Positions 1 to 31,000 of a stretch of DNA of 33,427 nucleotides are shown in pieces. This stretch comes from Anaerolineaceae bacterium 4572_78 (GTDB taxonomy: Bacteria > Chloroflexota > Anaerolineae > 4572-78), in NCBI GenBank assembly GCA_002084875.1, contig NBMH01000068.1:1-33427 (forward strand), given 5' to 3'. The position numbers and the translations under genes were made by a program. How positions within the stretch are numbered: position 1 is the first letter of the stretch; each line of letters begins with the position of its first letter. The notes under the pieces are model-generated. The model was not told where the DNA came from, made no database searches, and saw nothing but the letters and a program-made list of their open reading frames with translations.

Positions 1-1
1 C

Positions 2-577
2 TCATATTATCCTCTTATGTTTGCTTTTCACCAAAAAGTTCAAAGTTCGTACAGGGCTAGGCAAGGAAAAATTCTTGAGAAAATTATAATGGAAATATTG
101 AAACATTATGTAAAATGCGATATAGTACCTCAAAAAGCCTCTAAAATGCGTGATGAACTGAAAGATATATTTCATGCCAAAATTCCAAATTTAGATGTAG
201 ATGCTATGGGAATAATGACTTCTGATGAAAAAGCAATTGTTATTCAATTGCGTTCAAGAGATGATACAGGTGGTACCACAGCAAAAGCTTCATTGGTTGA
301 TTTATTGAAAGAACTTTTAAGAATAAATAAAACACCTGATTACGAAATATTGTATTTGGTGTGTGTTTGGGATAAACGCCAATCCACACAAAAACATTCT
401 ACGATAAAGAAAATGTATTCTTCCCTACAGGATGTTGTTAAATTAGATAAAAGACAATTTTTTGACGAATTATCTTACGGGATTGATCTAAAACAAAATA
501 TAAGATTGAAAATGGCTTATGGAACAGATGAAATTATGAAATCATTTTTTCAGTGGTCAGGAATATCGAATTATTAA
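2..577 (+). CDS. Type II restriction endonuclease, BsaWI-like (partial, frame broken at 3' end)
   Basis: This is probably the DNA-cleaving half of a type II restriction-modification system, because a DNA methyltransferase follows on the same strand. The frame is open to the window edge. The first ATG is at 17 and has no Shine-Dalgarno sequence, so the true start may lie outside. Counting from that ATG, acidic D60/D62 are followed by a strand and a QLRSRDDTGG motif at 77-86. This fits a PD-(D/E)XK fold and resembles the R-S-R-D region of CCGG-cutting enzymes (BsaWI/AgeI group); that family link comes from memory. The frame stops at 575-577 after a T6 run at 545-550. Protein-like sequence continues in another frame to 691-693 and overlaps the methyltransferase start, so the annotated C-terminus is probably wrong. 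I am fairly sure it is a restriction enzyme; the subfamily and specificity are inference. Confidence 0.7.
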   Translation, partial: SYYPLMFAFHQKVQSSYRARQGKILEKIIMEILKHYVKCDIVPQKASKMRDELKDIFHAKIPNLDVDAMGIMTSDEKAIVIQLRSRDDTGGTTAKASLVDLLKELLRINKTPDYEILYLVCVWDKRQSTQKHSTIKKMYSSLQDVVKLDKRQFFDELSYGIDLKQNIRLKMAYGTDEIMKSFFQWSGISNY

Positions 578-693
578 ATAGTAAATGCCGCAAACTAAAC
601 ACAACATTTGATTATAGTTCGTATCCTGCATTGGTCAATTCTATTGATTACATTCGAGATTTATTATACTTGAAGGCATGTTATGAAAAGTAA
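532..693 (+). other. Out-of-frame C-terminal continuation of the restriction endonuclease
   Basis: The frame one base back from the endonuclease frame is open from 532 to a TAA at 691-693. Its distal part reads FDYSSYPALVNSIDYIRDLL and then YLKACYEK, which looks like real protein rather than spacer. Its stop lies inside the first codons of the methyltransferase (ATG at 683), giving the 11-nt overlap usual for a translationally coupled restriction-modification pair. The switch must occur between 532 and 577, and the T6 run at 545-550 is the obvious site. It could be a natural frameshift mutation, a phase-variable tract, programmed slippage or a sequencing error. Confidence 0.6.
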
Positions 694-1960
694 TCAGCTA
701 TCATTGTTTGGTAGCTCACTTAAACAAAATCAAACCGATGATGCTATCGTTACGGTTTCATTTCGTAACTTGGTACCACATATTACAGAAACAACATATT
801 TAACTCACCCAATATACTATTATCCCGCTAAATTTATTCCCCATGTAGTTCGATATTGTATTGATACGTACACCAAAGAAAACGATGTGCTGGCTGATCC
901 GTTTGCAGGTTCAGGAACGGTTGGACTTGAAGCCTATCTCAATCGGCGAAATGCTTTTCTGCTTGACCTTAATCCGCTTCTTAACCACATCATTCCTATC
1001 AAAATTTATCAAGGGAAAGATAGTTTAGAGGCAACAATTTTAGACGAAATGTTGCATGCTGTGGTTAATAGCCATACCTCATTTATTCCTGCCTGGTCGA
1101 ATTATCAATATTGGTATCCTGAATCAATGTTGGAAACCATAAGCCGATATTGGGGCGGACAAAAACTTCTGGATAAAAATATCTATACTCAAATCATTGA
1201 AGCATCTTTGGTGAAAATTAGTAAACATTTCTCTTATGCTGAACATAAAGCCCCTAAACTGTTTCGGTCTAAATGGAAACAAAAATATATCAATCAATTA
1301 TTGCAAATTAATTGGCAGGATGAACTTAATATAAAACTTCGTGAATTGTCATTTGATTATCTTAAACGAATTAATCAGTTTATCGCTTATACAGAAGACC
1401 ATCAAAATACAATCGCATTTTTTGGAGGAATTGATTCATCATACTATCAATTTAATAACCAAACTCAATTTGATATTATCATTACTTCTCCACCTTATAT
1501 TCAAGCTCAAGAGTATATCCGTACTTCTAAAATGGATCTTTATTGGTTAGGATATACCGATAAAGAAGTAAAGAGATTGACAAAATTAGAAATACCTTAC
1601 CGAAAAGCAGACAGAATTATTGATACCGAAACCTTACAGCAGTTTAAATTAAAGCTAAACAGGGACGACTTGACCCGAATTGTAAATGCCTATTTTTGCC
1701 ATACAATCAATGCCATAGAAAATATGATGTGCCAATTGAAAAGCGGAGGGCATGCTTGTATATTTATTGGTAATCCAAAAGTTGATGGGATTGAAGTTGA
1801 AATATGGCGAATTTTGAAAGAATATTTCATTGAAAAAGGATATGTTTTTCAACATGTCTTTGAAGATGTAATTAAACGGAGGCAATTATTCAAATACCGA
1901 AAAAACAAAAACCCATCTGGAATGAAATCTGAGTTTTTGTTGGTACTTAGAAAAAGATAA
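683..1960 (+). CDS. Site-specific DNA amino-methyltransferase (type II RM, probably N4-cytosine)
   Basis: This enzyme transfers a methyl group from SAM to an exocyclic amino group in DNA and should protect sites cut by the neighbouring endonuclease. The SAM-binding motif ADPFAGSGTVG is at residues 71-81, followed by LLDLNP at 93-98. The catalytic motif TSPPY is at 268-272. A YYPAKFIPHVV segment (about 47-56) just before motif I is the usual motif X region. TSPPY is more common in N4-cytosine than N6-adenine enzymes, so the base is an inference. Motif I precedes motif IV with a long central region between, the alpha-like order rather than the common beta order; that region (about 100-260) would carry target recognition. 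Start 683 is supported by GAAGG about 8 nt upstream. The length of 425 aa is normal for the group. Confidence 0.88.
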   Translation: MKSNQLSLFGSSLKQNQTDDAIVTVSFRNLVPHITETTYLTHPIYYYPAKFIPHVVRYCIDTYTKENDVLADPFAGSGTVGLEAYLNRRNAFLLDLNPLLNHIIPIKIYQGKDSLEATILDEMLHAVVNSHTSFIPAWSNYQYWYPESMLETISRYWGGQKLLDKNIYTQIIEASLVKISKHFSYAEHKAPKLFRSKWKQKYINQLLQINWQDELNIKLRELSFDYLKRINQFIAYTEDHQNTIAFFGGIDSSYYQFNNQTQFDIIITSPPYIQAQEYIRTSKMDLYWLGYTDKEVKRLTKLEIPYRKADRIIDTETLQQFKLKLNRDDLTRIVNAYFCHTINAIENMMCQLKSGGHACIFIGNPKVDGIEVEIWRILKEYFIEKGYVFQHVFEDVIKRRQLFKYRKNKNPSGMKSEFLLVLRKR

Positions 1961-1978
1961 TGTAGGAGAAGTCTAGCG

Positions 1979-2581
1979 ATGAATATTTTTGATGTTCTCA
2001 TTATACTGGCGTTTATTTTTGGGGTGGGATTTTGCATGTATGTCGGCATGTTCAGGCAATCGCTGAGTTTGCTGAATATCTGGCTGTCTTTGCTATTTAG
2101 TTTGTGGTTAGCCCGCCCGATTGGTATGACGCTCATTAAAGCATTTTTGTACATGGAGGAAGAGTACACCTTAGAAACTTATGGTTTTGTCTTATCTTTG
2201 GCGACCCTTATAACAATTGGTGAAATTATAATTGCTCTCTTGATGGCACCAGAAGGACAACGGCTAGGTGAATCGGCAGGCATGGATATTCATGAAGTAA
2301 TTGATAACATTGAGGCGGAAGATAACAAAGAATTGTGGGATTTGCCCAGTTTTGTGATGGGAATTTTTACCACATTGATTTGGCTGGGGGTCGGTTTGAG
2401 TACATTTAAGTATTTGCTTCTTGCTTTGCCAGAGTATTCTGCCCTTTCGTCATTACAATATTACTTTCCACGAGCGGGATTGATGCCGATGTTAAGTTTT
2501 ATTTTTAAGGGGGTTTTATTCACAGTCAAATTTTTAGTTCCATCAAGATTGCCTGGCTTGTTAGGATACATCTTTAGTTAA
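1979..2581 (+). CDS. CvpA-like integral membrane protein
   Basis: This small membrane protein (200 aa) starts with MNIFDVLIILAFIFGVGFCM and has four to five hydrophobic segments at roughly 4-26, 27-45, 65-88, 122-148 and 160-190. The N-terminal layout (short Asn-rich start, Gly-rich first helix, Gly near residue 23) fits the CvpA/colicin V production family. CvpA proteins are inner-membrane proteins of poorly defined role linked to envelope stress. A strong TAGGAGA ribosome site lies about 10 nt upstream. The gene begins 18 nt after the methyltransferase stop and could be cotranscribed with it, but functional linkage is doubtful. Its last 21 bases overlap the end of the convergent pntAB gene. 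The family call is moderate, since this is fold-level resemblance only. Confidence 0.55.
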   Translation: MNIFDVLIILAFIFGVGFCMYVGMFRQSLSLLNIWLSLLFSLWLARPIGMTLIKAFLYMEEEYTLETYGFVLSLATLITIGEIIIALLMAPEGQRLGESAGMDIHEVIDNIEAEDNKELWDLPSFVMGIFTTLIWLGVGLSTFKYLLLALPEYSALSSLQYYFPRAGLMPMLSFIFKGVLFTVKFLVPSRLPGLLGYIFS

Positions 2582-2842
2582 TAGCTTCGTAGCCGCAATG
2601 AGGGACCCGACCAATGTAATACCTGAAATAGCATTTGACCCCGACATCAAGGGGGTGTGCAATGTAGCAGGCACTTTAGCAATAAGCTCAAACCCCAAAA
2701 AAATTGATAACGCCAAAATGAACGCTAGAAAAATTGGGGTCATGTTTACTTCGGAGGTACTTCCTCCATCATCTGCAAAAACCACTATGGTTGAACCGAA
2801 GGTGAGTATTGCAGTCGTAAAAAGTAAATAGAAGAAACGCAT
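2561..2842 (-). CDS. pntAB: NAD(P) transhydrogenase alpha subunit part 2 (PntAB)
   Basis: This is the membrane part of the split alpha subunit of the proton-translocating NAD(P) transhydrogenase. It forms helices of the proton channel that couples hydride transfer from NADH to NADP+. The protein (93 aa from this start) has a signal-like first hydrophobic stretch, then the family signature FELIAKVPATLHTPLMSGSN followed by AISGITLVGSL. I chose the ATG at 2840-2842 because AAAGGAG lies about 8 nt upstream; a start 30 nt further up overlaps the pntAA stop and has no such site. It begins 16 nt after pntAA and is cotranscribed with it. The pntB gene that normally follows is absent: the next 21 bases already overlap the convergent CvpA-like gene. 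Confidence 0.9.
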   Translation of the reverse strand: MRFFYLLFTTAILTFGSTIVVFADDGGSTSEVNMTPIFLAFILALSIFLGFELIAKVPATLHTPLMSGSNAISGITLVGSLIAATKLLTKDVS

Positions 2843-2858
2843 TGTATCACTCCTTTTT

Positions 2859-3998
2859 CTAATTTTTAGCATAATGCTCTTTTAACATTTCGCTACGAAT
2901 TTCATTTTTATGGGTAATCAAGCACCCGTCTATGATTTCGTCATCAAGGTCTAATGTTAGAGCATTATTTTCTTTATCCCAAAAATGCTCAATTAAATTA
3001 CGCAAATTGCTGGCATACATCTGACTGGCATGGTAGGGAATACGTCCCTCTAAATTAGTCAGACCGATGATGTTTACACCATTAACATCAACTTCTTTAT
3101 CAACAGCAGAACCTTCTACATTTCCACCTGTTTCAGTTGCCATGTCAATGATAACACTACCAGGCTTCATCCCTGCTACCATGTCTTTGGTAATAATAAT
3201 GGGAGCTTTTCGTCCAAACAATTTTGCGGTGGTGATGACGACATCAGATATAGCACAATGTTTTGCCATGCCTTGACGTTGTAATTCTATTTGTTCTTTT
3301 GTCAATTGCTTGGCATAACCTTGTTCAGTTTGTCCTGTCTCACCTAAATCAATCTTAACAAATTTTGCCCCAAGCGATTGCACTTGCTCGGCAACCACTG
3401 GACGGGTATCAAAGGCTTCAACCCTTGCCCCCAACCGTTTAGCAGTAGCAATTGCTTGCAACCCTGCAACACCTGCTCCAATGATAAACACTCGTGAAGG
3501 GGCTAATGTCCCAGCTGGTGTCATCATCATAGGAAAGGCTTTACTAATTCTATCTGCCGCTAAAATCACAGCGACATATCCCGCTAAACTCGCTTGTGAA
3601 CTCAATGAGTCCATCTTTTGAGCAAGAGTAGTACGAGGTATCATCTCCATACAAATTGTGCTAACACCACGTTTTGCCATGTGCTCAACCAATTCTTTTT
3701 CATTGAATGGGTCAAGATGACTAATATGGATTGCACCCTTTTTTAGAATGTCTATCTCTTCTTTGGGAGGTTTGTTTAAACGTAGCACAATGTCAGCACC
3801 CTTCAGTAATTTCTGACGGTTTTTGACCACTGTGGCTCCTACTTTTTTGTATTCATCATCAGTTATTTTTAATATCTGACCAATACCTGCTTCAACCTCA
3901 ACCTGCATTTCCTTTTGAGTCATTTTCTTTAACTCAGCTGGAATCATTGCTACACGTGTTTCACCTGGATGAATTTCTTTTAGAATAGCTATTTTCAT
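2859..3998 (-). CDS. pntAA: NAD(P) transhydrogenase alpha subunit part 1 (PntAA)
   Basis: This soluble NAD(H)-binding subunit of the proton-translocating transhydrogenase has 379 aa, the normal length for split PntAA. It shows the N-terminal alanine-dehydrogenase-like domain (MKIAILKEIHPGETRVAMIP), the RTTLAQKMDSLSSQA loop, the Rossmann motif GAGVAGLQAIATAKRLGARV followed by EAFDTRP, and the substrate-side GQTEQGYAKQL loop. The start at 3996-3998 is supported by AAGGAGTAAGGTGG just upstream, and homology begins there. An in-frame ATG at 4049 lies almost on the promoter and is not used. A near-consensus sigma-70 promoter lies 54 nt upstream. The partner PntAB follows after 16 nt. Without PntB (the NADP-binding subunit) in the neighbourhood, the complex needs a partner encoded elsewhere. 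Confidence 0.95.
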   Translation of the reverse strand: MKIAILKEIHPGETRVAMIPAELKKMTQKEMQVEVEAGIGQILKITDDEYKKVGATVVKNRQKLLKGADIVLRLNKPPKEEIDILKKGAIHISHLDPFNEKELVEHMAKRGVSTICMEMIPRTTLAQKMDSLSSQASLAGYVAVILAADRISKAFPMMMTPAGTLAPSRVFIIGAGVAGLQAIATAKRLGARVEAFDTRPVVAEQVQSLGAKFVKIDLGETGQTEQGYAKQLTKEQIELQRQGMAKHCAISDVVITTAKLFGRKAPIIITKDMVAGMKPGSVIIDMATETGGNVEGSAVDKEVDVNGVNIIGLTNLEGRIPYHASQMYASNLRNLIEHFWDKENNALTLDLDDEIIDGCLITHKNEIRSEMLKEHYAKN

Positions 3999-13780: not shown

Positions 13781-16075
13781 TTATTTTACAACTCTAAATC
13801 CAAAATGGTCATTTCCTCGAGTTACATCTGTATTGATACAGTCACTAATCTTGCACATTATATCAGGTCTAGGCCATGCTCCGTCAATTCTAACCATTGA
13901 GTCCACACTTTCATCTTCAGACGTGTTCGGATTTAGCCGACAACCGAAATGACCTGTATCTACTGTTCTTGACCATTCAGCAACATTCCCTGACAAATCG
14001 TAGACACCATAAGGATTTGGTGCAAATGTGGCAACAGGTTGAGGATGTCCTTTGTGTTTTCCATCACTGCGATCATTGCCCCCGTTATAAACTACATTAC
14101 CGCTATTTATAGTACCGTCATTTGTTGCATACACCCAATCTTCATTTCCACCTTTTCCTGTCCATTGCAATTCTTGTAAACTCGGCAATTCATATCCATA
14201 AAAATCAACAAATGCTTTTGCCCCGTAGTATTGAACATGATTAACGGGCCAGCGTTGTACTTCTTCGAATGAAGGCAATTCACAATCCAAATCCAGATGC
14301 CCTGCAAAAGTTATATTATCCTTAACGCTTCCATCAGCATTATAAATATCTTTGCTAAAAGTAATAATCTCCTTTCCATCAAGTTCTACTCCAGCAGGCC
14401 AAAACTCATGAAATTCACACCAATCGGTTATCTTATCAACAACATTCGGATAAACCGCTTTATCAAAATAAATTTCCCAATTGACATCACTGGGGTTTAC
14501 GACACTGAACATTTTCTGCTCACTATCATATTCAATCATGCACCTGTTTAACGGGTTTTCCATTTCCCATAGTTTAAAAACGCCATCTCTATCATGATCT
14601 TTTATCACTCGATAACCTAATATATTCATCATTTGATTACCGTTTTTATCATAAATTAACAGGTTAGTGGCTCCTGTTGCAGGACCAACAGTAATCATAT
14701 TTTCACATAATGCCGCATTTAAAAAATCCACATACTGCTGATTGGTTATCTCTGTTTTTGCCAGTGTAAAAGGCTCAACATTTTTCCCGTCTCCCGGCAC
14801 ATCAACAAATTCAATCGCTGAGACATCTGATGTTTGATTATCCACATCATTGGTTTCAACATTAGTAGCATCAGTAGTTTGCCCATCATCTGCATCTGCA
14901 TCAGTCACTGAATACCTTGCTATTCTAAAACCATGATGGTCATTACCGCGATTATCAAATGTATAATCACGTGCAGCTGTCCCGAGTGGTGTCTGGTGAT
15001 AGTTCCATGCACCTCCTCTCTTGCATCTTTCATCAGAGCCATCCAATATGATAGGATTTGTTGCAGGTGTCATGTCGAACGGCTCATAATTGTCTTCTAC
15101 CCATTCCCACACATTACCACCGAGATTATATAAACCATAAGGATTAGGGATACCTTCTTTTACATTATGACGATGATGTGTTGCAGGTTTTGCTTGTTCT
15201 TCATTCCAGTTTGCATTTGATACATCAATGCCATCATGTACTGCATAAAAAAAGTTTTGCCCTCCTTTTGCAGCATATTCCCATTGAGCTTCTGTTGGTA
15301 GTTTTATATCATAATAGAGTGTAAAAGCTTTTGCTCCCCACCAACGGATATATGCTACAGGATAGTTGGAAACATCTTCCAGTGTCGGCAAGTTCTGAAG
15401 TTCAGACCAGTTAGAATAGTCATTTTTTAATTCTGATGTATCCAACTGTTTTGGAGTTGATGTGTAGTCATAGTAGTTACATACCTCATGCCAGTCAAAA
15501 TCAGTATGGGGATCCTTTACATAAAAAGGATTTTCTCTGGATTCATCAAAACCTATAAAAGCAATATTCAAAGGATTTTCAGGCTCAACAGTGCCAGTAA
15601 AAGCACCATCTCCGTCACCCATGCCCTGAGCATCACCATCAGCATTATCGTGATCTTTCATAACTCTGGTACCACTAAGCTCATATAAACCTTTTCCAGC
15701 ATACTCAGATGAACTGCTCCCAACAACCTCTATGGTTTTTCTTGTTTCATTAATTTCTATCAAGCCATCTTTGTAGGCATTACTCAAAAATTCAGCAAAC
15801 TGTGCAGTTGTAACTTCAGTTTCACTCATTTCAAAATTGCTTAAAGTTACTTCATGCTCTGTCGCTGTAATATTTTTTCGGGCAGAATTGATACTATTAT
15901 CCCCCATTGTAAATGTGCCACCAGGAATTGATTTAAATACTATTGAGGAAGGGAGTAATGGTGTTGTTGATGTTTCACTATTATCACTGTTTTCATTTGG
16001 TTGTTGACAACTCACAATTAACATACTGATAATGCTCAAAATCAAAAATAAAACTTTTATTTTCTTCTTATTCAT
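13781..16075 (-). CDS. Lipoprotein with two FGE-sulfatase (SUMF1-type) domains
   Basis: This is a secreted, lipid-anchored protein. MNKKKIKVLFLILSIISMLI then VSCQQ forms a signal peptide with a lipobox Cys. Domain 1 (about 45-400) has IPGGTFTMGDNS, SETEVTTAQFAEFL, LPTEAQWEYAAKGG, YNLGGNVWEWVEDN and GNDHHGFRIAR. Domain 2 (about 430-764) has AKTEITNQQYVDFL, LPSLQELQWTGKGG, YDLSGNVAEWS and GNDHFGFRVVK. Both domains carry an insertion with Asp-rich loops; DHDRDGVFKLWE in domain 2 fits an EF-hand/dockerin calcium loop. Domain 1 lacks the cysteine pair of true formylglycine-generating enzymes, so it is unlikely to act as a sulfatase activator. An acidic Thr-rich linker joins the domains. The start (16075) follows a GGAGG site; a frame extension to 16192 looks non-coding. 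Ligand unknown. Confidence 0.82.
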   Translation of the reverse strand: MNKKKIKVLFLILSIISMLIVSCQQPNENSDNSETSTTPLLPSSIVFKSIPGGTFTMGDNSINSARKNITATEHEVTLSNFEMSETEVTTAQFAEFLSNAYKDGLIEINETRKTIEVVGSSSSEYAGKGLYELSGTRVMKDHDNADGDAQGMGDGDGAFTGTVEPENPLNIAFIGFDESRENPFYVKDPHTDFDWHEVCNYYDYTSTPKQLDTSELKNDYSNWSELQNLPTLEDVSNYPVAYIRWWGAKAFTLYYDIKLPTEAQWEYAAKGGQNFFYAVHDGIDVSNANWNEEQAKPATHHRHNVKEGIPNPYGLYNLGGNVWEWVEDNYEPFDMTPATNPIILDGSDERCKRGGAWNYHQTPLGTAARDYTFDNRGNDHHGFRIARYSVTDADADDGQTTDATNVETNDVDNQTSDVSAIEFVDVPGDGKNVEPFTLAKTEITNQQYVDFLNAALCENMITVGPATGATNLLIYDKNGNQMMNILGYRVIKDHDRDGVFKLWEMENPLNRCMIEYDSEQKMFSVVNPSDVNWEIYFDKAVYPNVVDKITDWCEFHEFWPAGVELDGKEIITFSKDIYNADGSVKDNITFAGHLDLDCELPSFEEVQRWPVNHVQYYGAKAFVDFYGYELPSLQELQWTGKGGNEDWVYATNDGTINSGNVVYNGGNDRSDGKHKGHPQPVATFAPNPYGVYDLSGNVAEWSRTVDTGHFGCRLNPNTSEDESVDSMVRIDGAWPRPDIMCKISDCINTDVTRGNDHFGFRVVK

Positions 16076-16218
16076 AGTTATAATAGCCTCCATAAAGAAG
16101 TATCCTTTTTCAGCAAAATCCGATTCAGTTAGTCCTGAAAGTGGGACATCAAACTCTCGTAATGATTTAGGTGGCATGTTTTGCACCTTCAAGGAACAAA
16201 GCAGGGAGTATTGTTATG

Positions 16219-17512: not shown

Positions 17513-20353
17513 CTAAAATGATGTTAGATAATTTTCAACATGTGGCACCCATTCAGCAATTAATGTCCTAGCTCGTTTTTTATCAATGATTTTCCGTACA
17601 TGCTTTCGCTCAATTTGCGGTGAGTCTGGTTCAAATAGTGTCTCGTTAAAATGAGGTATTTCCCTGATAACATTATGCAGTTCAATAGCAAATCTGATGA
17701 AATTCGCTGGGGTAATGACGTTTTTTAATTTAGTTAATAATACCTCAATTTTCTCTTGAAGTTGTGATTGTTCACTAGGATTCAAATTTGATTGCTCATG
17801 AAGCACACCTTCCAAGAGAATTTCGTTACTTCGTTTTAATTGTGCTAAAGTTATTATTGGTGGTTGAGAAAAAAATTGATTCGAATCATTCCCCGTTGAA
17901 GGTGCGGAGTTGTGGTAGGGTAACACCGAATCAACATCGGCAAGAGTATTTTTGTCCAAGCCAGTCAATATTTCATGATGGGCAAAACCAGTTACATTAT
18001 AACTTGCCCAATAATATGGATGTGGATTAATATCATGCACATGACGCATTGCTGTTTTCATGGCAATAGCAGGAGATTTGCCTGAAATAATTTCTTTGTA
18101 AAAGGTGAATAACAAACGACGATTTAATAGTTCATCTCCATTCCACAAACCCGTTACCATCACCCTAGCCCCTACAGCCATCATCGCTAAATGTAAACCG
18201 ATATATTCCTCACTTGTCAAATAAGCTATCTGTTCTCTACGACAAGTAGATAATGTAACCAAGTAAGTACGTTCTAACCACAATTCTTCAATAATTTTCT
18301 GAATGGTCAATATTCCACCCGCTAAATATAATCCCGATGTATTTGGTTCTAGTGCTTGAAAATCACCATGATGACCAAAATGAATTATGCGGCGATTGCG
18401 AGCTTCATTGAGTACTTTTTTAGATGTAGCTGCATTCCCTTTCAGAACTTTTGTCTTTGAGCCAATGTACTTAGCCAGCATATCAGCTTCGGGTAAGACA
18501 TGAGGGAAATAATTTTCCGAATTTCTATCGCCAGGTGAAGCCACCACTAAAAATGGTTGAGTTGTAGCTAAAGGGTGGTCAGCATGTTGTGAAGCAATGC
18601 TGTTATATTCTTGTTTCCACAAAGCATAAAGCATGCCGATATTTGGCGTAACTGTGATGGTATATTCATCCATAGCATACTTGTGTGTATCGGGATTGCA
18701 AGCAACGGCAAATGGTAAAAGATGCAATTTGCCAAAAGGAGCAATAACAAGGCGTTCGTCTTCTTCATCAATATATTCGTTTAGGGGGTCAATGACTGCC
18801 AAATACCAATCATATAAAATTGTTTGGCGTTTATAGCGATTTGGACTGCGACCTACTCCTGTTGGTATTTCAATGTCATATACCCAAGTTGTCATGTCAT
18901 CAATTAGGCTATCATTTAATTCTGGCAAATGCACATATTGAACCCCATCGTGTTGCACCAAGAAAGCACACCAACATCCCTTACCGAAACGATAATAATT
19001 AACAATTGTCGCTCGCAATGCTGATGCTAATTCGCAAGCATCGTCCAGAGAAATTGTCATGGTATTTTGAGAAGCAGTCAAGGCAGGATAATCACGGTGT
19101 AGACTATTCCAACGCAATATCTCATCACTCTGCAATTCCTGAACTTTCTCCTTATTTTTTTGGAGTTTTTCTTGATGAAACACATCGCGTACCGAATAGT
19201 CAGCTAGGTTAAGGTCGAGTTGAATACGTGCGGCTTTATCTTGTACATCACTGATTTGCTCTAACTCATTGCCAAACTCCTTATAATTTTTGTTCGGTTT
19301 GATTTGTCCCGCCAAACGAATAACGAAATCTCGCCCTTGAGCGAACGTAGCATGTTCAAAAGCGGTAGCTACATCCCCAACCAACAAGGAAGCATGCACT
19401 AAGTTGGTATAGATGGTGGCATTTTTCGAGATGGTTTTGGAGTTATTAATCAGCGATACAGATTTTCCTCGCATGTATTTTATCGACTCATGAAAGGTGG
19501 TATATTTTGCTTGGGCTTCGGAAAAATCCCGCATGTGATAGTAAAAAATATTCCCCAAAGCAATAGCTACTAGACGGCAAAGTTCAGGATGGGTTTTTGT
19601 AGAAAAGGTTTCAAGTGCCTGTTGGTAATGATAAATAGCTTTTTGAAGATTATCAGGCTCATCGCTTGATATGTGAGCATGGTATATTTGACCGATAAAA
19701 TAATTTGTCCATGCCCATTGAAATGGAAATGTGTTTTGGTTTCTAAATTCAAACGCCAAGTTAAAATATTCAATTGATTTTTGGAGATATGGTGGTTGGT
19801 CAATGCTAAGGGTAGCATAATATACCGCCAAATCATTTTGTATTGTTGCCCATTCATTCGGGAACTGCTGACGGGTAAAAATCTTTAGAGCTTCGTCGTA
19901 GTATTGCATTGCCTCTTCAATATTTTTGCTATGGTTTCCACTCCGACTGATAAGAAGCATGCTACCAATTACTTGATAAATTTCAGCTTTTTGGGGTGAG
20001 GAAGGTAACGTATTTAGCTGTCGTTTGGCTGATTGAATAGAGGTATCCATAATGCTTGAATATTGTTTAGTCAGCCAATTTCGCATTAGTTCTGACTGAA
20101 TATCAGGCGTAATGTACGTTTTTTTATCTATACATGCCGCCAACTTGGCGATGGGCAGGGCATCATCAGCATCTCCGACGGATCTTTGCAACCAGTAATA
20201 TCCGCCGAGCATGATAGCTACGATAGATAGAAATATACCGATTGCCCAAGCGATACCCCAATAAGCCCAGATGGCAGGAGCAACAGCCAGGGTGAGAATG
20301 ATAATTACGAAAACAATAGTGTTAGATTGTTGGTCATCATCAATTTGTGTCAT
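17513..20353 (-). CDS. Membrane-anchored TPR-CHAT putative cysteine peptidase
   Basis: CHAT domains are caspase-like peptidases or regulators. This 946-aa protein begins with two transmembrane helices (about 11-30 and 33-53), placing the rest in the cytoplasm. TPR-like helices span about 75-330 (AMQYYDEALKIFTRQQFP, AIYHYQQALETF), followed by a helical linker. The CHAT domain lies at about 530-810. The catalytic His is in RIIHFGHHGDFQ (about 659) and the Cys in LVTLSTCRREQ (about 703), so both dyad residues are present. ALRATIVNYYRFG and HPYYWASYNVTGF are typical family strands. A roughly 130-aa helical C-terminal extension (about 815-946) is not one I recognise and could be an adaptor domain. 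It lies downstream of the Asp-box gene on the same strand with a repeat-filled gap. The substrate is unknown. Confidence 0.82.
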   Translation of the reverse strand: MTQIDDDQQSNTIVFVIIILTLAVAPAIWAYWGIAWAIGIFLSIVAIMLGGYYWLQRSVGDADDALPIAKLAACIDKKTYITPDIQSELMRNWLTKQYSSIMDTSIQSAKRQLNTLPSSPQKAEIYQVIGSMLLISRSGNHSKNIEEAMQYYDEALKIFTRQQFPNEWATIQNDLAVYYATLSIDQPPYLQKSIEYFNLAFEFRNQNTFPFQWAWTNYFIGQIYHAHISSDEPDNLQKAIYHYQQALETFSTKTHPELCRLVAIALGNIFYYHMRDFSEAQAKYTTFHESIKYMRGKSVSLINNSKTISKNATIYTNLVHASLLVGDVATAFEHATFAQGRDFVIRLAGQIKPNKNYKEFGNELEQISDVQDKAARIQLDLNLADYSVRDVFHQEKLQKNKEKVQELQSDEILRWNSLHRDYPALTASQNTMTISLDDACELASALRATIVNYYRFGKGCWCAFLVQHDGVQYVHLPELNDSLIDDMTTWVYDIEIPTGVGRSPNRYKRQTILYDWYLAVIDPLNEYIDEEDERLVIAPFGKLHLLPFAVACNPDTHKYAMDEYTITVTPNIGMLYALWKQEYNSIASQHADHPLATTQPFLVVASPGDRNSENYFPHVLPEADMLAKYIGSKTKVLKGNAATSKKVLNEARNRRIIHFGHHGDFQALEPNTSGLYLAGGILTIQKIIEELWLERTYLVTLSTCRREQIAYLTSEEYIGLHLAMMAVGARVMVTGLWNGDELLNRRLLFTFYKEIISGKSPAIAMKTAMRHVHDINPHPYYWASYNVTGFAHHEILTGLDKNTLADVDSVLPYHNSAPSTGNDSNQFFSQPPIITLAQLKRSNEILLEGVLHEQSNLNPSEQSQLQEKIEVLLTKLKNVITPANFIRFAIELHNVIREIPHFNETLFEPDSPQIERKHVRKIIDKKRARTLIAEWVPHVENYLTSF

Positions 20354-20527: not shown

Positions 20528-20655
20528 GCGTAATTATTCACTACCACTCATTAATAAACCCCACCCCCGACCCTGTCCCATATTCCTACATGTTTTACCT
20601 GAAAAATAGCATTGAACAGCCCTGGGCTAGGGGTGGGGGAGTACAATCCCTAAGC
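20528..20655 (+). repeat. GC-rich dispersed repeat, copy III (diverged)
   Basis: It contains GCGTAATTATTCACTACCA, CTCATTAATAAACCCCACCC, CCGACCCTGTCCC, then AGCATTGAACAGCCCTGGGC and AGGGGTGGGGGAGTACAATC. The blocks follow the order of the copies at 11313 and 26383, with an extra segment in the middle. AGCATTGAACAGCCCT also occurs at 7858-7873. The repeat forms the last codons of the Asp-box gene ending at 20627, so it appears to have replaced the natural end of that gene. Confidence 0.6.
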
Positions 20656-21781
20656 TGGGGGTGGTCGTTGAGGATGAAGATGAAAGTTCTGTTTCCAATT
20701 GAAGACAATGTCCGACAGGAAAAAGGGATAAATCAGCAGGTGAAAAAGTATAAGTTGTCCAATCTGTCCAATCTGTCTTATCTGGCTGACATAAATTGTT
20801 TGTATTTTCATTGATAGAAGTGCGTACCCGTATGGTAACAGTAGTACTTGCTGGTTGCATTGATTCCCATGTGAGACTTTGCCAAGCGACTCTATGGTTG
20901 GTGTTATAGGGCATGGTATACGTCCCATTGGTGTAAAAATGAGGATTGCCACCTTGAACATCGGGCCAATGTGCCATGTAAATATCGCTTTCGCCATTTC
21001 GATAGTCTTCCCAAACGGCATGCACCATGCCACTGTTATCCACCACTAAATGAGGGTTGCTCTGTTTTGCTTGACCTTCATCATCATTGACCATCAAATT
21101 TGTTCCCCATGTTGAACCGCCATCGTTTGAAATAGCGAAATAAATATCCGCATTGCCATGCCGATAATCCTGCCATATTACATATACATTACCTTGATTA
21201 TCAATCGCCAAACTCGGATTATCACGTACAGTGCTGTCGGGGTCAGTCTGAACGGGACGAGCATTTAATTTAACCGATTCACTCCAGCCATCGCCGCCAT
21301 CTGCATGAGCAAAATAAATCTCAAATTGACTGTCGGCATAACTTCGCCATGCCAAGTAAATCTTACCTGTGTTGTCAGTAGCAAGTTTTGGGCTGTCCTC
21401 AAAACTAATTTGACCATCATCGTCATCGTTAATAATTATATTGGGTGTCCATGTTTGTCCCATGTCTTCTGATTGTGAAAAATAAATATTGGCATCCCCA
21501 CTACGATTATCTTGCCAAGCTACGTAGATTAATCCATTTGAACCGACTGTTACGCTGGCTGAATCTTGAAAGGCATCGCTCTCATCATCGTTAATTTTTA
21601 TGGCAGGATACCAACTTTTTCCTTTATTATCAGAATAGGAAAAGTAAATATCTGCGTCGCCGTTACGAAAATCTTGCCAGGCAGTGTACAGATTTCCTTG
21701 AGTATCAGCTACAATTCCACAATGACATTGATTTGATGATTGAGTATCGGTTGTTAGTGGCATGTTAGTTGTCCATGTTTT
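20627..21781 (-). CDS. Asp-box beta-propeller protein, C-terminal part (broken gene)
   Basis: This is the distal part of a secreted protein made of sialidase-type repeats of about 55 residues. Each repeat has a core such as GLIYVAWQDNRSGDANIYFS and an Asp box S-x-D-x-G-x-T-W (SEDMGQTW, SNDGGSTW, and SDNKGKSW). At least five repeats are present, followed by a different C-terminal domain (WQSLTWESMQPASTTVTIRV, a membrane-fold-like beta segment). The frame is one base off from the N-terminal part at 21765-22301. Deleting one A from the AAAA run (21778-21781) joins the two as ...INDETWTTNMPL. The natural C-terminus is cut: the last residues LGIVLPHP come from the GC-rich repeat. The domain type is secure; enzyme activity is unlikely, and a surface-binding role is inferred. 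Confidence 0.7.
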   Translation of the reverse strand, partial: KTWTTNMPLTTDTQSSNQCHCGIVADTQGNLYTAWQDFRNGDADIYFSYSDNKGKSWYPAIKINDDESDAFQDSASVTVGSNGLIYVAWQDNRSGDANIYFSQSEDMGQTWTPNIIINDDDDGQISFEDSPKLATDNTGKIYLAWRSYADSQFEIYFAHADGGDGWSESVKLNARPVQTDPDSTVRDNPSLAIDNQGNVYVIWQDYRHGNADIYFAISNDGGSTWGTNLMVNDDEGQAKQSNPHLVVDNSGMVHAVWEDYRNGESDIYMAHWPDVQGGNPHFYTNGTYTMPYNTNHRVAWQSLTWESMQPASTTVTIRVRTSINENTNNLCQPDKTDWTDWTTYTFSPADLSLFPVGHCLQLETELSSSSSTTTPSLGIVLPHP

Positions 21782-22301
21782 CATCGTTAATTTTGGTATG
21801 CGACAGCCATGTTTCCCCATCATCTATCGAATAGGAAAAATAAATATCGGCAGTTCCATCTCGTTCATCTTGCCAAATAAGATATAAATCACCGTTTTCA
21901 TTAGCGACAATATAAGGATAATACTGCTCGATTCCAGCAAGCTCAGATGTAATATTTTTATTGGATGTCCAGCGTCGAGAAAGTGTCACTTGGCTTGAAC
22001 CTTGAACAACCTCCGTCAAATCAAATGTGCCGTCCAAGAAATCGGTGACAGTACCGCTACCATGCGTTGTACGATTTACAGTGGTCCAAAAATCATACTT
22101 TTGAGGAATCCAAAAACTTAAGCTTTTGGATTCCTTGCGAGATAGTCCATTACAATCTCGACCGACAGGAACTGCTAATGAATTTGTGGAATCAATCTTT
22201 TGTTGATATAATTCCGACATAAAACTTTCTGTCATGGTTAAATTCGACAGATATAAAACTATAATAGCGAATACCGATAAGCGAATGGTAAAAGCTTTCA
22301 T
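21765..22301 (-). CDS. Asp-box beta-propeller protein, N-terminal part (broken gene)
   Basis: This is the start of the secreted propeller protein that continues at 20627-21781. A signal peptide MKAFTIRLSVFAIIVLYLSN is preceded by an excellent AGGAGGT site 6 nt upstream. The mature part has one full repeat (GDLYLIWQDERDGTADIYFS with Asp box SIDDGETW) before the frame stops at TAA (21765-21767), a few codons after the frameshift. Residues ESKSLSFWIP (about 56-65) are encoded by an exact 30-nt palindrome (22105-22134) that looks inserted. The gene lies 72 nt downstream of the larger TPR-CHAT gene on the same strand, so a shared operon is possible. Confidence 0.72.
   Translation of the reverse strand: MKAFTIRLSVFAIIVLYLSNLTMTESFMSELYQQKIDSTNSLAVPVGRDCNGLSRKESKSLSFWIPQKYDFWTTVNRTTHGSGTVTDFLDGTFDLTEVVQGSSQVTLSRRWTSNKNITSELAGIEQYYPYIVANENGDLYLIWQDERDGTADIYFSYSIDDGETWLSHTKINDENMDN
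22105..22134. repeat. 30-nt palindrome inside the Asp-box coding region
   Basis: GGAATCCAAAA, an 8-nt loop (ACTTAAGC) and TTTTGGATTCC form a perfect 11-bp stem. At 30 nt it adds exactly ten codons (ESKSLSFWIP) without shifting the frame. Another 30-nt palindrome of similar build (GGAGTGCAAAAG...CTTTTGTACTCC) lies in the intergenic gap at 22328-22357. Confidence 0.7.
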
Positions 22302-22373: not shown

Positions 22374-25300
22374 CTATCCCTGCACAAAAATAAATCCCGC
22401 CCAATAAAAAGGATGGTATCCTTGCTGTAAAGCGGTTTGTTGAGCATGTTGCAAAGCGGCCGCAACATTTAGGCTTTGTTCCGATGGCATTACACATTGA
22501 TAAAAGTCTGTCATCAACTGAGCAGAGGCTTGGTCAGCCACAGGCCACAAACTGACAATTAATCCCGAAGCTCCCGCTGCTAAAAAGCCACGTCCCATGC
22601 CTAACAATCCGCCGCCGCGTGGCTGTCCACGTCCTGTTTGGCATGCACTTAGAATAACAAAGGGACGTTTGGGAAGTGTAATTTCCCGTAAATCTGCTAC
22701 CGTCAAGCGTGAATCTGCCAACGACATCCATGAAAAGAAAGGGTTATCAGGTCGAAAAATGGCATGCGTTGCCAGGTGAAGTAAATGGCTGGTTTGACAT
22801 GCCTCTCGAAACCGCTTGTGGGTAGCGGCTTGTTCCAACAAAAGATGTGTTTGCCAATTAGATTGCAAGGTAGCTTCAACTGCTTGCCCTTCTATTGTCG
22901 TATGAGGTAATCGTCCCTCATCAGAATAACCGATGATTAATGCATGTGGTTTATCATGTACGACAGGCATCTTTTGAGATGTGAGCAATACTTCGGTCGC
23001 AGAAAGATAAGTTAAACTGAAACGCTCTATTAAATATCGTTGCCCATCAAAAAAACCTGCAAATGGCAAATTATGTTCATTAGGCGGCACAATAAGAAAC
23101 ATAAAATCATAATCAGTTAAATAATCTTCAAGAGGTGCAATCAACGCTTGATAAAAACGGTTGAGATACGTTTGTGCCATGCCAAGACTTTTTTGTGATA
23201 ATAGTTTGCTATGCCCATGCTCTATAAAAAATTGCCATGACTTTAACAAACGTTGGACAGCCTTTACAGAAATTAAATCAGGCACAAAATGAGTATGGTC
23301 GGAGGTGACTAAGATTGCTTGGAAATGTCCATCAACCACAAAATAATGCAGTAGGACATGTGATTTAGTAGGGGTTTCCCTACCGCACTCAAACAATCTT
23401 TTTTGTATTCGCCGCTCAAAATTTTGAGCGGTTTGAGATGTGAAACGAAACGACGATATCGGCACTTCGTCAGTAGTGGTTACATTCGTCATCCGCACCT
23501 GCCAGCGATGAGTCAATTCGGCGATTTGGGTTTCAATTTGCTGTACATGTCGGCGTAATTCTGTGACATCGATTTCAGGAAATTTTGGTAGTTCATCACT
23601 ACGAGGATCAATCGGGTTATCTAATTTGCTTTGATGCCAATGCCATGCTTGTCGTAATGTCTCCAAATCATTGCGTAATTGTCGGTCAGTATCCGAAAGT
23701 GTAAAAGGTAGTGTTTCAAATAAATCAGGACGAGGTAAGGGAGCGGTATGTGCCATGTTGAGAATATAAAACAGTTCAGTGATTGCTCCCATTTTGTGAC
23801 TGAGATGAATACTATCTTGATAAATCTGCATCTTATTATCTAAAAATCCTATCTGAAATTCGTCGAGAGGGAGTCTCATTCGTAACTGTTCAATCGTTTC
23901 AAGGGCAGTTTGATAATGATAACGTGCTTCGTACAGGTTACCCATTTTCTCTAATATTTTTCCTAACAGGTGATACGTGGCAATAGCAATTTCAGTGAGA
24001 CTGTAGCCATCGGCGAGTGCCAATGCTTTTTTGGCACGATGATGAGCTATTGTCAAAGCAAGCTTTGACCCTCCAGGTTTCTCTACCTGACTGTCATGAG
24101 CGGCTAATCTACATGAAGCAAAAAGGATGTGAAGTCTAGCCGTTAAAGTCGGTAGTAGTGCCTTGTCTAAATTCTGTTCAATATTGGTAGCTAAACTTTG
24201 AGCCTTGTCATAGTTTCCTTGTTCTAGAGCTAAAAATGCTCGTTCCAAATCGAGCATGAACACTCGCTTATGAGCGGCACTTTGTTGGAAAATATTGCGT
24301 GCTTTACACAAACATGCTTCCGCTTTTTGATACGCCTGTAGTCGTTGATACCCCACACCTTGAATCATCAAAGCAAGTGCCTCATGCCAAAGTGTTACAT
24401 CTTCTCGGAATGTTATTTCTGCGGCGGCGGCTAAGCTGATTGTTTCTTGCAACAAGTTCAAATCTTGGTAGACTAATGCTCGATATACGTTGACTACAGC
24501 AACTTCGTTTGGATTGGGAATCGCCACAAAAGTATTATGGGCATTTTCTAAATGATGTAAAGCAGTTTGATACTGTCCTCGCCGATAGGCTAATACTCCC
24601 AAATTAAGGTCAACTCGTCCCACTTCTTGGTCATAACCTGTTTGAGTCAGGGCAGTTTGAGCCGATATCAACAACTGTTCGGCAATATCAAATCTGTCAA
24701 TTTCTTCCAACACATTTGCTCGATTGATGTCAACCCGTGCTGCTTGGATGGTATCTCCCAAATCAATAAATAAAACATGTGCTTGTTCATAAGATATAAG
24801 TGCCTGACTCATTTGCCCCAAACGGCGATAAAGGACTCCGATATTCATATCTAGTAAAGCTAAATACCGTCGAGCATGTTCGCCGATTGTTTGGCATGTT
24901 CGTCGAGCATGTTGAGCCAAATCGAGGGCAGTCTGATACTCACCTATTTCTTGAAGGGCGGCTAATTGATTGATTTGCAAACGGAGCGATTTCAAATCAT
25001 GCCCCAAGTTATGACAAATTTTCTCGGCATGTTGAAAATATTCTAAGGCTTCTTGGTATTGATTTAAGAAAAAAAGGGCATTACCTTTTGCCCACAAAGA
25101 TAAACTTTCTGCTTCAGGCAAAGCCAGCACATCCGCAACCGCACAGCAAATCTCAGCAATATCAAAGGCATGCTGGGCATTCCGAAGCATCTCATCATCC
25201 ACTTTCTCCTTCAAGTGTTTAACTACGTCTAAGGAGAGATGAGAGTGTAATGATTCTAATTTGACAGACATTTCGTCTGTCCCATATTGAGCAGTACCAT

Positions 25301-25382
25301 GCCAAGTGATTAATTCATTTACTACATCTTGTGGGCTTAGGAAATATTCAGTTCGTTGATAGCTATACAAGTCATTTGCCAT
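22374..25382 (-). CDS. Large TPR-CHAT putative cysteine peptidase
   Basis: A cytoplasmic protein of 1002 aa. TPR units fill about 75-530 (ALFFLNQYQEALEYFQHAEK, GVLYRRLGQMSQALISYEQA, GVLAYRRGQYQTALHHLENA). A helical connector follows, then the CHAT domain at about 690-1002. Catalytic His in HLLHLATHAIFRP (about 869) and Cys in VILSACQTGRG (about 911) form an intact caspase-like dyad, with GGGLLGMGRGFLAAGASGLI and HPFYWAGFIFVQG completing the fold. Residues about 437-444, GGSKLALT, are encoded by an inserted half-repeat (24051-24074). Its start lies 46 nt inside the upstream zinc-finger gene, which implies coupled translation. TPR-CHAT proteins elsewhere act in protease-triggered immunity or stress signalling; here the partner and substrate are unknown. 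Confidence 0.85.
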   Translation of the reverse strand: MANDLYSYQRTEYFLSPQDVVNELITWHGTAQYGTDEMSVKLESLHSHLSLDVVKHLKEKVDDEMLRNAQHAFDIAEICCAVADVLALPEAESLSLWAKGNALFFLNQYQEALEYFQHAEKICHNLGHDLKSLRLQINQLAALQEIGEYQTALDLAQHARRTCQTIGEHARRYLALLDMNIGVLYRRLGQMSQALISYEQAHVLFIDLGDTIQAARVDINRANVLEEIDRFDIAEQLLISAQTALTQTGYDQEVGRVDLNLGVLAYRRGQYQTALHHLENAHNTFVAIPNPNEVAVVNVYRALVYQDLNLLQETISLAAAAEITFREDVTLWHEALALMIQGVGYQRLQAYQKAEACLCKARNIFQQSAAHKRVFMLDLERAFLALEQGNYDKAQSLATNIEQNLDKALLPTLTARLHILFASCRLAAHDSQVEKPGGSKLALTIAHHRAKKALALADGYSLTEIAIATYHLLGKILEKMGNLYEARYHYQTALETIEQLRMRLPLDEFQIGFLDNKMQIYQDSIHLSHKMGAITELFYILNMAHTAPLPRPDLFETLPFTLSDTDRQLRNDLETLRQAWHWHQSKLDNPIDPRSDELPKFPEIDVTELRRHVQQIETQIAELTHRWQVRMTNVTTTDEVPISSFRFTSQTAQNFERRIQKRLFECGRETPTKSHVLLHYFVVDGHFQAILVTSDHTHFVPDLISVKAVQRLLKSWQFFIEHGHSKLLSQKSLGMAQTYLNRFYQALIAPLEDYLTDYDFMFLIVPPNEHNLPFAGFFDGQRYLIERFSLTYLSATEVLLTSQKMPVVHDKPHALIIGYSDEGRLPHTTIEGQAVEATLQSNWQTHLLLEQAATHKRFREACQTSHLLHLATHAIFRPDNPFFSWMSLADSRLTVADLREITLPKRPFVILSACQTGRGQPRGGGLLGMGRGFLAAGASGLIVSLWPVADQASAQLMTDFYQCVMPSEQSLNVAAALQHAQQTALQQGYHPFYWAGFIFVQG
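24051..24074 (-). repeat. 24-nt half-copy of the palindromic repeat inside TPR-CHAT
   Basis: On the coding strand GGAGGGTCAAAGCTTGCTTT then GACA equals exactly one half of the 48-nt element, from the GGAG end to the loop. It is in frame and encodes GGSKLALT between two TPR helices (after VEKP, before IAHHRAKKALALA). The same half in the same frame occurs in the hybrid sensor kinase at 29612-29635. Confidence 0.8.
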
Positions 25383-28006: not shown

Positions 28007-31000
28007 TTACTTGTGTGTCAATGCTGCTACCCATTCCCAATTTGTTGGCACACCATATTTTGCAAAACTGTCTATCCGTTGCAGATATACTTCAGCCGCC
28101 TTGTCATCAGGATTAACGGTAATCACCTTTTCAAATTCAGCTCGTGCCAGCTCAAATTCCTGACGACGATAATGAAATATCCCTTGTTCGAAATTGGTTT
28201 GGGTTAGGAGTTTTGCTTGTCGGATAGCTTTTGGAGTGGCATCCATGACTTCAAAAATAGAAATCGGTTCGGTCTTGCCTTTGACCTGCACCATGTCTAA
28301 AAACCGAAACTGATATTTTTTGGGGTCTTTTAAACTGCTAATGGTTTCATCGCTGATAATCATTGAGGCACCATACATTTTAGTCAGACCTTCCAAACGT
28401 GCCGTTAAATTCACATTGTCCGAAAAAGCATCGCCCTGCATGCGATTTATTTCGCCGACCATGCCCACCATCATGTGACCGACATGAATACCAATCCCAA
28501 TCTGAATAGGCATATAACCACTTTTTTTGCGGTCGATGTTATAATGAGACACCTTTTTTAATTTTTCGATGCCAGATTTGATGGCATCATCCGCTCCATT
28601 GGGGAAAACTGCCATGACCCCGTCGCCAAGATATTTTACGATGAATCCACCATATTCTCGGATGACAGGGCTAACTCGCTTTAAGTAAGCATTGACAAAA
28701 TTAAAGTTTTCTTGAGGAGTCATGTCTTCCGATAGAGTGGTAAAAGAGCGAATATCAGAAAACATCACTGCCATTTCTTTGCTGACATGGTCGCCTAAAT
28801 TAACATCAATAATACTATCCTTTTGCAGAAAATCGAGAAATTCATGTGGTACAAAGCGACTGTAAGCATGGTTCATTTTTGCCAATTGAAGATGTACTTT
28901 AACCCGTGTCAATAACTCCTCTTTGGAAAAAGGTTTGGTTAAATAATCGTTGGCACCAGCTTGAAAACCTAGTATTAAATCTGCTAATTGATTTTTAGCC
29001 GTCAGCATGAATATCGGCAATTCATGGGCGGGATAAGTTTTGCGTATCTTGCGACACACATCATAGCCCGACATGTGCGGCATCATCACATCTAAAAGCA
29101 CTAAATCAAAATGGTAATCTGATTCAAAAAGGGCAAGAGCTTCGGGACCATAAGCCGCTTGTGTGACATGATAATTTTGTAAAGTGAGATGATTAGTAAT
29201 AACTTGCAAATTCATCGGTTCATCATCAACCACTAACACATGATATTTCTGATTATTATTTGTCGCATTATCTTCTGTTTCAATAGGAACGACAATTGAC
29301 TTGTCGGATTTATCGTCATGTTGTATGATAGATGAAATCAGAGGTGTAGGTGGAGATAGTTTTATATTATTATTTGCTAGAGGCAAAGTAAATGTAAAAC
29401 GCGAACCGTGTCCTACTTTGGATTTCACCGAAATTTCCCCGCCATGCAATTCAACCAATTGTTTGGTGATGGCTAGACCAAGCCCTGTACCACCATATTG
29501 TCGAACCGTCGAGCCATCCGCTTGTTCAAATGATTGGAAGATGCGTTCGTATGAGTTTTTGTCAATGCCGATGCCTGTATCGGTGATGCTGATAGCTATA
29601 AACTCGTTGCCTGTTAAAGCAAGTTTTGACGCTCCTGAGGATATATGTTTATGGGTGCCATTATTTTCGGCATGAACACGACTAGCTGATACCACCACTT
29701 GCCCCGAATTGGTAAACTTGATGGCATTGCCAACTAAATTGTACATGATTTGCTGTAGACGATTTTCATCAGCCATGACAGGTGGCAAATTGGAACGAAT
29801 CTTGTTGACCAGTTTAATCGGTTTTGTGCCTAGCAATGGCTGGGACAATGATAAAACAACATCGGCTAAACTCGACACACTGACAGGTTTCGTTTGCAAC
29901 TCAAGTTGTTCATTCTTCATCCTAGAAAAATCCAGAATATCGTTCACCAAATGAGCCAATCGCTTGCCTCCTGAAACAATCATTTGTAAATTTGTAATGG
30001 TTGTTTGGGGCAATGCTCCAGTTGCACCATCAACAAGCGATTCTGCTAAGCCGATAATGCCATTTAATGGCGTTCGTAATTCATGGGAAGTGTTTGCCAA
30101 GAATTCATCTTTAAGATGGTCAACCCGTTGTAAGCGTTTGTTCAGTAATTCTGCCTGCTCCAAACGATGTGCCTGATATCGAATATAACCGCCCACAATC
30201 GAGATGATTACGAGGGTGTAAATTGTGTATGCCCACCATGTTTTCCACGGGGGTGGGAAAACCGTTACGACAATTGAGGTGTCTTGTTCATTCCATACCC
30301 CATCATTATTTGTACCTTTTACATGGAAAATATAGTCGCCAGATGGCAAATTGGTATAGGTCGCAAAACGGCGTGTTCCGACATAATTCCATGTTTTGTC
30401 GAATTTTTGAGGATAAAATAAATTAACACCATTAATCCCACCAAAGAACATTTCACCCGTCATGCTTTGGTGATATGCTCCAGAGGTAAATTCGTTACTT
30501 TGCAAACCATCTTTGGGGTCATAGTTCCGAAAAGTATCCGTTTTAGGATTAAATTTCGATAAACCTCGATTTGTGCTAAGCCACAAATTTCCTGATTCGT
30601 CGGGCAGTATGCCATGAATAACGCCGTTTGGTAGCCCATCTTTTGTAGTGTAGTAGTTAAATGTTTTGCTTTTTGGATTAAAGCGATTTAATCCGCCACC
30701 ATCAGTCCCAAGCCACAAAATACCTGTTTGGTCTTCATAAATTGAAAGAACAGAATTGTTGCTAATACTATTTGGCATGTCAGGATTAACCTGATATCGA
30801 GTAAATTTTTCCGTATCTCGATGGAATTGATTAAGTCCCCCACCATCTGTACCAATCCACAAAGTGCCTTTATAGTCTTCATGAATAGACAAAACATGAT
30901 TACTTCCCAAACTAGCATCATTATAAATATTATATTGATAATAGGTAAAAATCCCTGTTTCTCTATCAAATAAATTAAGTCCCCCATTATAAGTTCCCAA

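What the first reader, a model, noticed from the sequence alone, without database searches (positions are those of the whole stretch)
532..693. Restriction endonuclease frame broken at a T6 tract; the true tail overlaps the methyltransferase start
The annotated frame stops at 577, yet a protein-like reading frame one base away continues to 693 and overlaps the methyltransferase ATG. A single T change at 545-550 would restore a longer enzyme. Homopolymer tracts are classic phase-variation switches in restriction systems.
Basis: partly seen in the sequence, partly recalled or inferred. Interest (0 to 1): 0.55.

Follow-up and report, generated by a model that had tools for sequence, protein, structure and literature searches.

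The report
Decayed restriction enzyme beside intact methyltransferase
The bacterial DNA-cutting enzyme gene here is broken by two small deletions, not by a reversible T-run switch, while its partner that protects the DNA looks intact: an ordinary case of a restriction system losing its cutting half (or an assembly fault that looks like one).

Summary
In detail: frame 2 stops at 577, and frame 1 continues to 693, overlapping the methyltransferase (MTase) ATG at 683. The tail is the genuine C-terminus of the restriction enzyme (REase): its profile score is 28.4 bits, against at most 6.5 for 2,000 shuffles, and each of the 24 intact homologues aligned has it.

The T6 switch is not supported. Frame 2 still matches the family after T6 (FFQW, to base 556), and 0 of 24 homologues carry a T6 there. 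The break lies at 557-562, where the window lacks 130 nt present in all four homologues aligned as DNA. A second, in-frame gap of 75 nt lies at 648/649. The first gap removes the DD(L/F)W segment found in 32 of 32 related loci, so a T change would join the frames but not give a family-like enzyme.

Of 42 invariant REase columns in the window's span, 39 are kept and 3 fall in the gap. The MTase keeps 72 of 73 invariant columns. Best reading: a recently decayed REase (R-minus, M-plus). A misassembly near the contig end is not excluded. BsaWI kinship is not supported. Ordinary; low interest.

The parts
2..577 (+). REase, in-frame part (5' end off the contig): catalytic core, homologous to the family up to W at 554-556, then a few residues and TAA
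   Evidence: 35-56% identity to 24 homologues
545..550 (+). T6 tract (lies inside intact homology; not the break)
557..562 (+). Frame break: 130 nt present in 4 of 4 DNA-aligned homologues missing between 561 and 562; removes the DD(L/F)W segment
562..693 (+). Displaced REase C-terminal tail, frame 1 (NIELLNSKC...ACYEK), TAA at 691-693
648..649 (+). Second gap: 75 nt (25 codons, in frame) missing compared with 4 of 4 DNA-aligned homologues
   Evidence: residue counts for 24 homologues
672..676 (+). GAAGG, a likely ribosome-binding site of the MTase, inside the REase tail
   Evidence: read by eye; inference
683..1960 (+). Intact DNA methyltransferase, 425 aa (PF01555; DPFAGSG and TSPPY motifs), likely N4-cytosine type
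   Evidence: the N4 assignment from SPPY is recalled knowledge

Best explanation
This is a Type II restriction-modification pair whose endonuclease gene has recently decayed while its methyltransferase stayed intact. Shown: compared with its relatives the REase lacks 130 nt (between 561 and 562, shifting the frame so that translation ends at 577) and 75 nt (between 648 and 649, in frame); the true C-terminal tail is still there, out of frame, and overlaps the MTase start. Inferred: the REase is inactive because conserved helices of its C-terminal part are gone; the MTase is still made from its own start, with a ribosome-binding site inside the old REase tail, and goes on methylating DNA as a solitary enzyme. 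Losing the cutter and keeping the protector is the harmless order of loss (established knowledge of Type II systems, recalled).
For: Tail homology far above shuffles, in the right order in the profile (positions 303-336 and 358-375). DD(L/F)W segment in 32 of 32 related loci and absent from all frames of the window's first 2,100 bases; the loci were found with window sequence that lacks the segment (patterns from the core, confirmation by tblastn with the window row), so they were not chosen for it. Gaps of exactly 130 and 75 nt against 4 of 4 homologues in an unguided DNA alignment. By protein, 41-55 and 23-25 residues occupy these places in 24 homologues. Of 42 invariant REase columns in the window's span, 39 kept, 3 (D, D, W) lost in the gap, 0 substituted, which speaks for a recent break. 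MTase: no gaps at commonly filled columns, 72 of 73 invariant columns kept against 24 homologues. No second copy in the genome held. Broken REases recur: L013 (one in-frame stop), L020 and L032 (several breaks) and L029 = L003 (gene cut by foreign sequence at a contig end), 4 of 32 loci.
Against: No reads are available, so the gaps could be assembly faults; the site lies about 560 bases from the contig end. A second likely frame break in the same contig, in a BNR-repeat gene near 21,770, shows that this assembly may hold indel errors. The first gap can be parsed in two ways (see the third rival); parsimony alone favours the single 130-nt loss. No assay of either enzyme.
Confidence: 0.75

Rival explanations
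1. Assembly or consensus artefact: the organism has an intact REase, and both gaps arose in assembling a metagenome near a contig end.
For: Incomplete genome in 252 contigs; the contig begins inside this gene. All point-conserved sites are intact. A second frame break elsewhere in the contig.
Against: Two separate losses of 130 and 75 nt are not the usual single-base error; TRF finds no tandem repeat at the site. The contig is 91% covered by ORFs of 90 aa or more. Broken copies of this gene occur in other genomes.
Confidence: 0.18
2. Phase-variable restriction enzyme: slippage in T6 (545-550) toggles between short and long forms.
For: A T6 tract lies before the break, and a one-base change would join frames 2 and 1 arithmetically. 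Phase-variable restriction-modification enzymes are known (PMC4889913, abstract read).
Against: Frame 2 homology continues through FFQW beyond T6. 0 of 24 homologues have a run of 6 T there. T-runs of 6 or more are common in this contig: 33. The joined product would lack the DD(L/F)W segment kept in 32 of 32 loci and 25 further residues.
Confidence: 0.03
3. The protein was first shortened in frame (perhaps still a functional short form) and then lost its frame in a separate small event: frame 2 after W reads S-GISN, which resembles the family's GxSN, and frame 1 reads NIELLN from overlapping bases.
For: GISN in frame 2 aligns with the G-x-S-N of the homologue P0001 (the motif is common in A2), and the 75-nt gap is in frame.
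Against: Needs one event more than the single 130-nt loss; ISN in frame 2 follows almost automatically from the bases that encode NIE in frame 1 (read by eye); no homologue lacks the segment (32 of 32 have it).
Confidence: 0.04

Closest known systems
REase-MTase pairs and fusions found here (e.g. L008, L011, L009; fused L018, L029, L025, L027)
   Same: REase 35-56% identical over the in-frame part, tail 25-64%; MTase 40-59%; overlapping or fused arrangement
   Different: The homologues carry the DD(L/F)W segment and the 25-residue segment in one frame; the window lacks both
EcoO109I (PDB 1wte/1wtd), Type II restriction endonuclease
   Same: Nearest solved fold of the intact homologue L009: Z 9.3, 229 residues, rmsd 5.4
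   Different: 9% identity; Foldseek E 0.062; the match ends at model residue 304, so the last helices are not covered
BsaWI / CCGG family
   Same: Both are restriction endonucleases; both probably of the PD-(D/E)XK kind
   Different: No profile hit in the PDB; R-(D/E)R motif absent in 23 of 24 homologues
Phase-variable Type IIG enzyme Cj0031 of Campylobacter jejuni (PMC4889913, abstract read)
   Same: A restriction-modification gene whose expression is altered by sequence change within it
   Different: There a reversible switch; here two losses that a one-base change cannot make good, and a separate intact MTase

Membership tests
REase family defined here by alignment A2 (24 homologues) | Invariant core residues (e.g. 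RSRDDTGGTTAK) | tested here: met
   39 of 42 invariant columns in the window's span kept, 0 substituted
REase family defined here by alignment A2 (24 homologues) | DD(L/F)W helix segment and a single frame through YIRDLL to the C-terminus | tested here: not met
   Segment in 32 of 32 loci, absent in the window; frame broken at 557-562. Hence a broken member, not a working one
BsaWI / CCGG family | R-(D/E)R recognition motif (PMC6344858 and PMC4652773, passages read) | tested here: not met
   Absent in 23 of 24 homologues; the single RAER lies at residue 64, far from the catalytic part
BsaWI / CCGG family | Permuted active site PD-x(21-53)-K-x(12-13)-E/D | tested here: inconclusive
   A loose pattern matched 10 of 24 members; positions were not compared. 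The order D141/D143...K171 in A2 would allow a permuted lysine
BsaWI / CCGG family | Fold | tested here: inconclusive
   Relatives Ecl18kI and PspGI appear at Z 5.8-6.4; BsaWI is not in the listed rows, which excludes nothing
EcoO109I-like endonucleases | Fold of the whole chain | tested here: inconclusive
   Z 9.3 over 229 residues but rmsd 5.4 and 9% identity
Phase-variable restriction systems (homopolymer type) | Frame break located in the homopolymer | tested here: not met
   Homology in frame 2 runs past T6 to 556
Phase-variable restriction systems (homopolymer type) | Length mixture of the tract in reads | not testable with these tools
   No reads held
Solitary (orphan) methyltransferase after REase loss | Intact MTase with a disabled cognate REase | tested here: met
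   MTase 72 of 73 invariant columns, no gaps; REase broken. By sequence only; activity not tested
PF01555 DNA methylases (N6/N4) | Profile score above the curated cut-off | tested here: met
   47.7 bits against a cut-off of 26.7

The most novel reading that the evidence does not exclude
The shortened REase is still made and active, either as two pieces (the core ending at 577 plus the 46-residue tail from its own GTG at 553) or through -1 ribosomal frameshifting on the A-TTT-TTT at 544-550, giving a minimal enzyme without the DD(L/F)W helix. No homologue shows this, and nothing here tests it directly.
Probability: 0.03. Interest if true: 0.45.

Novelty: new member of a known kind. Interest (0 to 1): 0.15.

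Why it matters
It replaces an attractive but wrong reading (a reversible switch) by an ordinary one (REase decay with MTase kept). As a by-product it delimits a restriction-enzyme family, fused to its methyltransferase in some hosts and overlapping it in others, that none of the libraries searched here (Pfam, NCBIfam, PADLOC, PDB sequences) names. If the decay is real, the organism's DNA should carry a methylation mark without a matching cutter.

Tried and rejected
T6 phase variation: rejected as above. BsaWI kinship: profile against the PDB gave nothing at E up to 1, motif absent in 23 of 24; BsaWI not among the listed structural rows, which by itself excludes nothing. Curated names for the REase family: none significant in Pfam, NCBIfam or PADLOC for 24 members (scattered weak hits in 1-2 members only, including EcoRII-C at 0.053 and HpyAIV at 0.015). 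Homologues in plasmids and phages: none for the window's part; none in plasmids for P0001. Homologues in viral contigs: none. A first genome-contig scan with the single protein found nothing; the scan with the two-row alignment A1 found 32 loci. Other genomes: tallies 3 of 200 genomes with the REase part at E up to 0.01 (the own genome, G062, and G131 weakly at 0.0024); tallies 1 of 400 for P0001 (the own genome only; the draw did not report G062). MTase: tallies 4 of 200 at E up to 1e-20 (own genome, G001 weakly, G062, G173). A short direct repeat as cause of the losses could not be tested for want of a near relative; TRF found no tandem repeat at the site.

Rows left out before counts: A2 holds 24 of the 32 loci (L013, L020, L029, L032, L034, L036, L037 and L038 left out: broken, truncated or divergent). 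The MTase comparison holds 24 homologues: 23 of the 32 loci (those whose frame matched a motif pattern) plus L043; an earlier version of that script had a faulty pattern and returned no MTases, so the MTase lines are void. The DNA alignment used 4 of 32 loci. In A2 some fused members were cut a few residues short at the C-terminus (L027, L031).

Papers: PMC6344858 and PMC4652773, passages only; PMC4889913 and PMC3488263, abstract and outline only; all others seen only in search listings. No claim of absence from print is made.

Full report
What is there. The window is the whole of contig C179 of a genome that is 81.6% complete in 252 contigs. Its first 577 bases are the C-terminal part of a restriction endonuclease in frame 2, without its N-terminus. 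From 532 to 693 frame 1 is open, and the MTase ATG lies at 683, so that the two overlap by eleven bases.

The tail is genuine. A two-row alignment of the window's REase with a homologue from the same class found 32 related loci in named genomes of Poribacteria, Bacteroidota, Chloroflexota, Chlorobiota, Cyanobacteriota, archaea and others. Of these, 24 REases with an unbroken frame were aligned (A2). All continue beyond the place where the window's short frame stops, and all share the Y(I/V/L)RD of the window's tail. The 44 tail residues score 28.4 bits against the profile; the best of 2,000 shuffles scores 6.5. A search of the window's own genome with the profile puts the frame-2 part at profile positions 77-304 and the frame-1 parts at 303-336 and 358-375, and finds no other copy.

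The T6 tract is not the break. In frame 2 the codons after T6 read Q-W. The W is nearly invariant in the family, and the residues before it fit the family's S-L-F-E pattern, so the frame is right through T6. None of 24 homologues has a run of six T there. Runs of six or more T occur 33 times and of A 20 times in the contig.

What broke it. In an unguided DNA alignment with four homologues, the window lacks 130 nt between 561 and 562 and 75 nt between 648 and 649; all four homologues have exactly these lengths. The first loss is not a multiple of three and moves the frame; the second is 25 codons. By protein, 24 homologues hold 41-55 (median 44) and 23-25 (median 25) residues in these places. 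The first missing piece holds the DD(L/F)W motif, found in 32 of 32 related loci and nowhere in window 1-2100. In the predicted structure of the intact homologue L009 (mean pLDDT 90.8) the missing pieces correspond to helices 267-281 and 285-303 and to the end of helix 327-344 with the loop after it. A join of the two frames by a T change would therefore still lack these parts.

How old. Within the window's span 42 columns are invariant in the homologues: 39 are kept, the three others (D, D, W) fall into the first gap, and none is substituted. This fits a recent break, or an assembly fault. The MTase is intact: no gaps at commonly filled columns and 72 of 73 invariant columns kept against 24 homologues. 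It matches PF01555 at 47.7 bits, and its best PDB matches are N4-cytosine methyltransferases (E 0.0012). Its nearest relative in a quick tree is L008 (support 94, not starred). A GAAGG lies six bases before its ATG, inside the REase tail (read by eye), so that the MTase may be made although REase translation now ends 105 nt upstream; this is inference.

The family decays elsewhere too. L013 has one in-frame stop; L020 and L032 have several breaks; in L029, the same contig as L003, the gene starts at a contig end in foreign sequence and its N-terminal part lies at the end of another contig (L005) next to what looks by eye like a transposase. That is 4 of 32 loci.

What it is related to. No curated Pfam, NCBIfam or PADLOC family names the REase, and the profile finds no PDB chain at E up to 1. 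The nearest solved fold is EcoO109I (Z 9.3, 229 residues, rmsd 5.4, 9% identity; Foldseek E 0.062). BsaWI kinship is not supported: the CCGG-family motif R-(D/E)R (passages of PMC6344858 and PMC4652773) is absent in 23 of 24 homologues. The invariant residues at the end of the second core strand of the model (153-160) read Q-L-R rather than E-x-K, with an invariant K at residue 171 of L009, so the catalytic lysine may sit elsewhere than in the canonical motif; this is inference.

Against this reading. No reads are held. The site is near a contig end. A second likely frame break exists in this contig: a BNR-repeat gene read in two frames that meet near 21,770, where relatives have mostly longer single frames. 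An assembly fault is therefore kept at 0.18.

Verdict. Confirmed observation, genuine tail, wrong mechanism. The best explanation is a decayed REase beside an intact MTase; ordinary, of low interest.

Noticed in passing
window 20627-22301 (-): A BNR-repeat (sialidase-type propeller) gene is read in two frames that meet near 21,770; the repeats continue across the break, and relatives have mostly longer single frames. Likely a second frame break or an assembly indel in this contig.
   Followed up: partly
L013, L018, L025, L027, L029, L031, L036, L038: In 8 of 32 loci REase and MTase form one reading frame (L013 with a stop inside the REase part); in most others they are separate and overlap by a few to some tens of bases. 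On the MTase tree the fused/split label needs 4 changes, 3 forced by starred branches.
   Followed up: partly
L043 (G173), about 1489-3903 (-): An MTase 57-58% identical to the window's stands next to a different 334-aa ORF, not matched by the REase search: perhaps a swapped partner.
   Followed up: no
L003/L029 and L005 (G062): The REase gene of this relative is split between two contig ends beside what looks like a transposase, probably an insertion.
   Followed up: partly
L032 and L019: In these two Chlorobiota loci an MTase of this kind lies upstream of the REase, unlike in the other loci read.
   Followed up: no
window 17516-20353 (-) and 22377-25382 (-): Two large CHAT-domain (caspase-like) proteins with TPR repeats; an FGE-sulfatase-domain protein lies nearby at 13784-16192 (-).
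   Followed up: no
window 28010-32431 (-): A 1474-aa hybrid regulator: propeller repeats, histidine kinase, response regulator and an adenylate/guanylate cyclase domain in one chain.
   Followed up: no
window 1-1960: The R-M region has 32% G+C against 39% for the contig, which fits acquisition from elsewhere.
   Followed up: no
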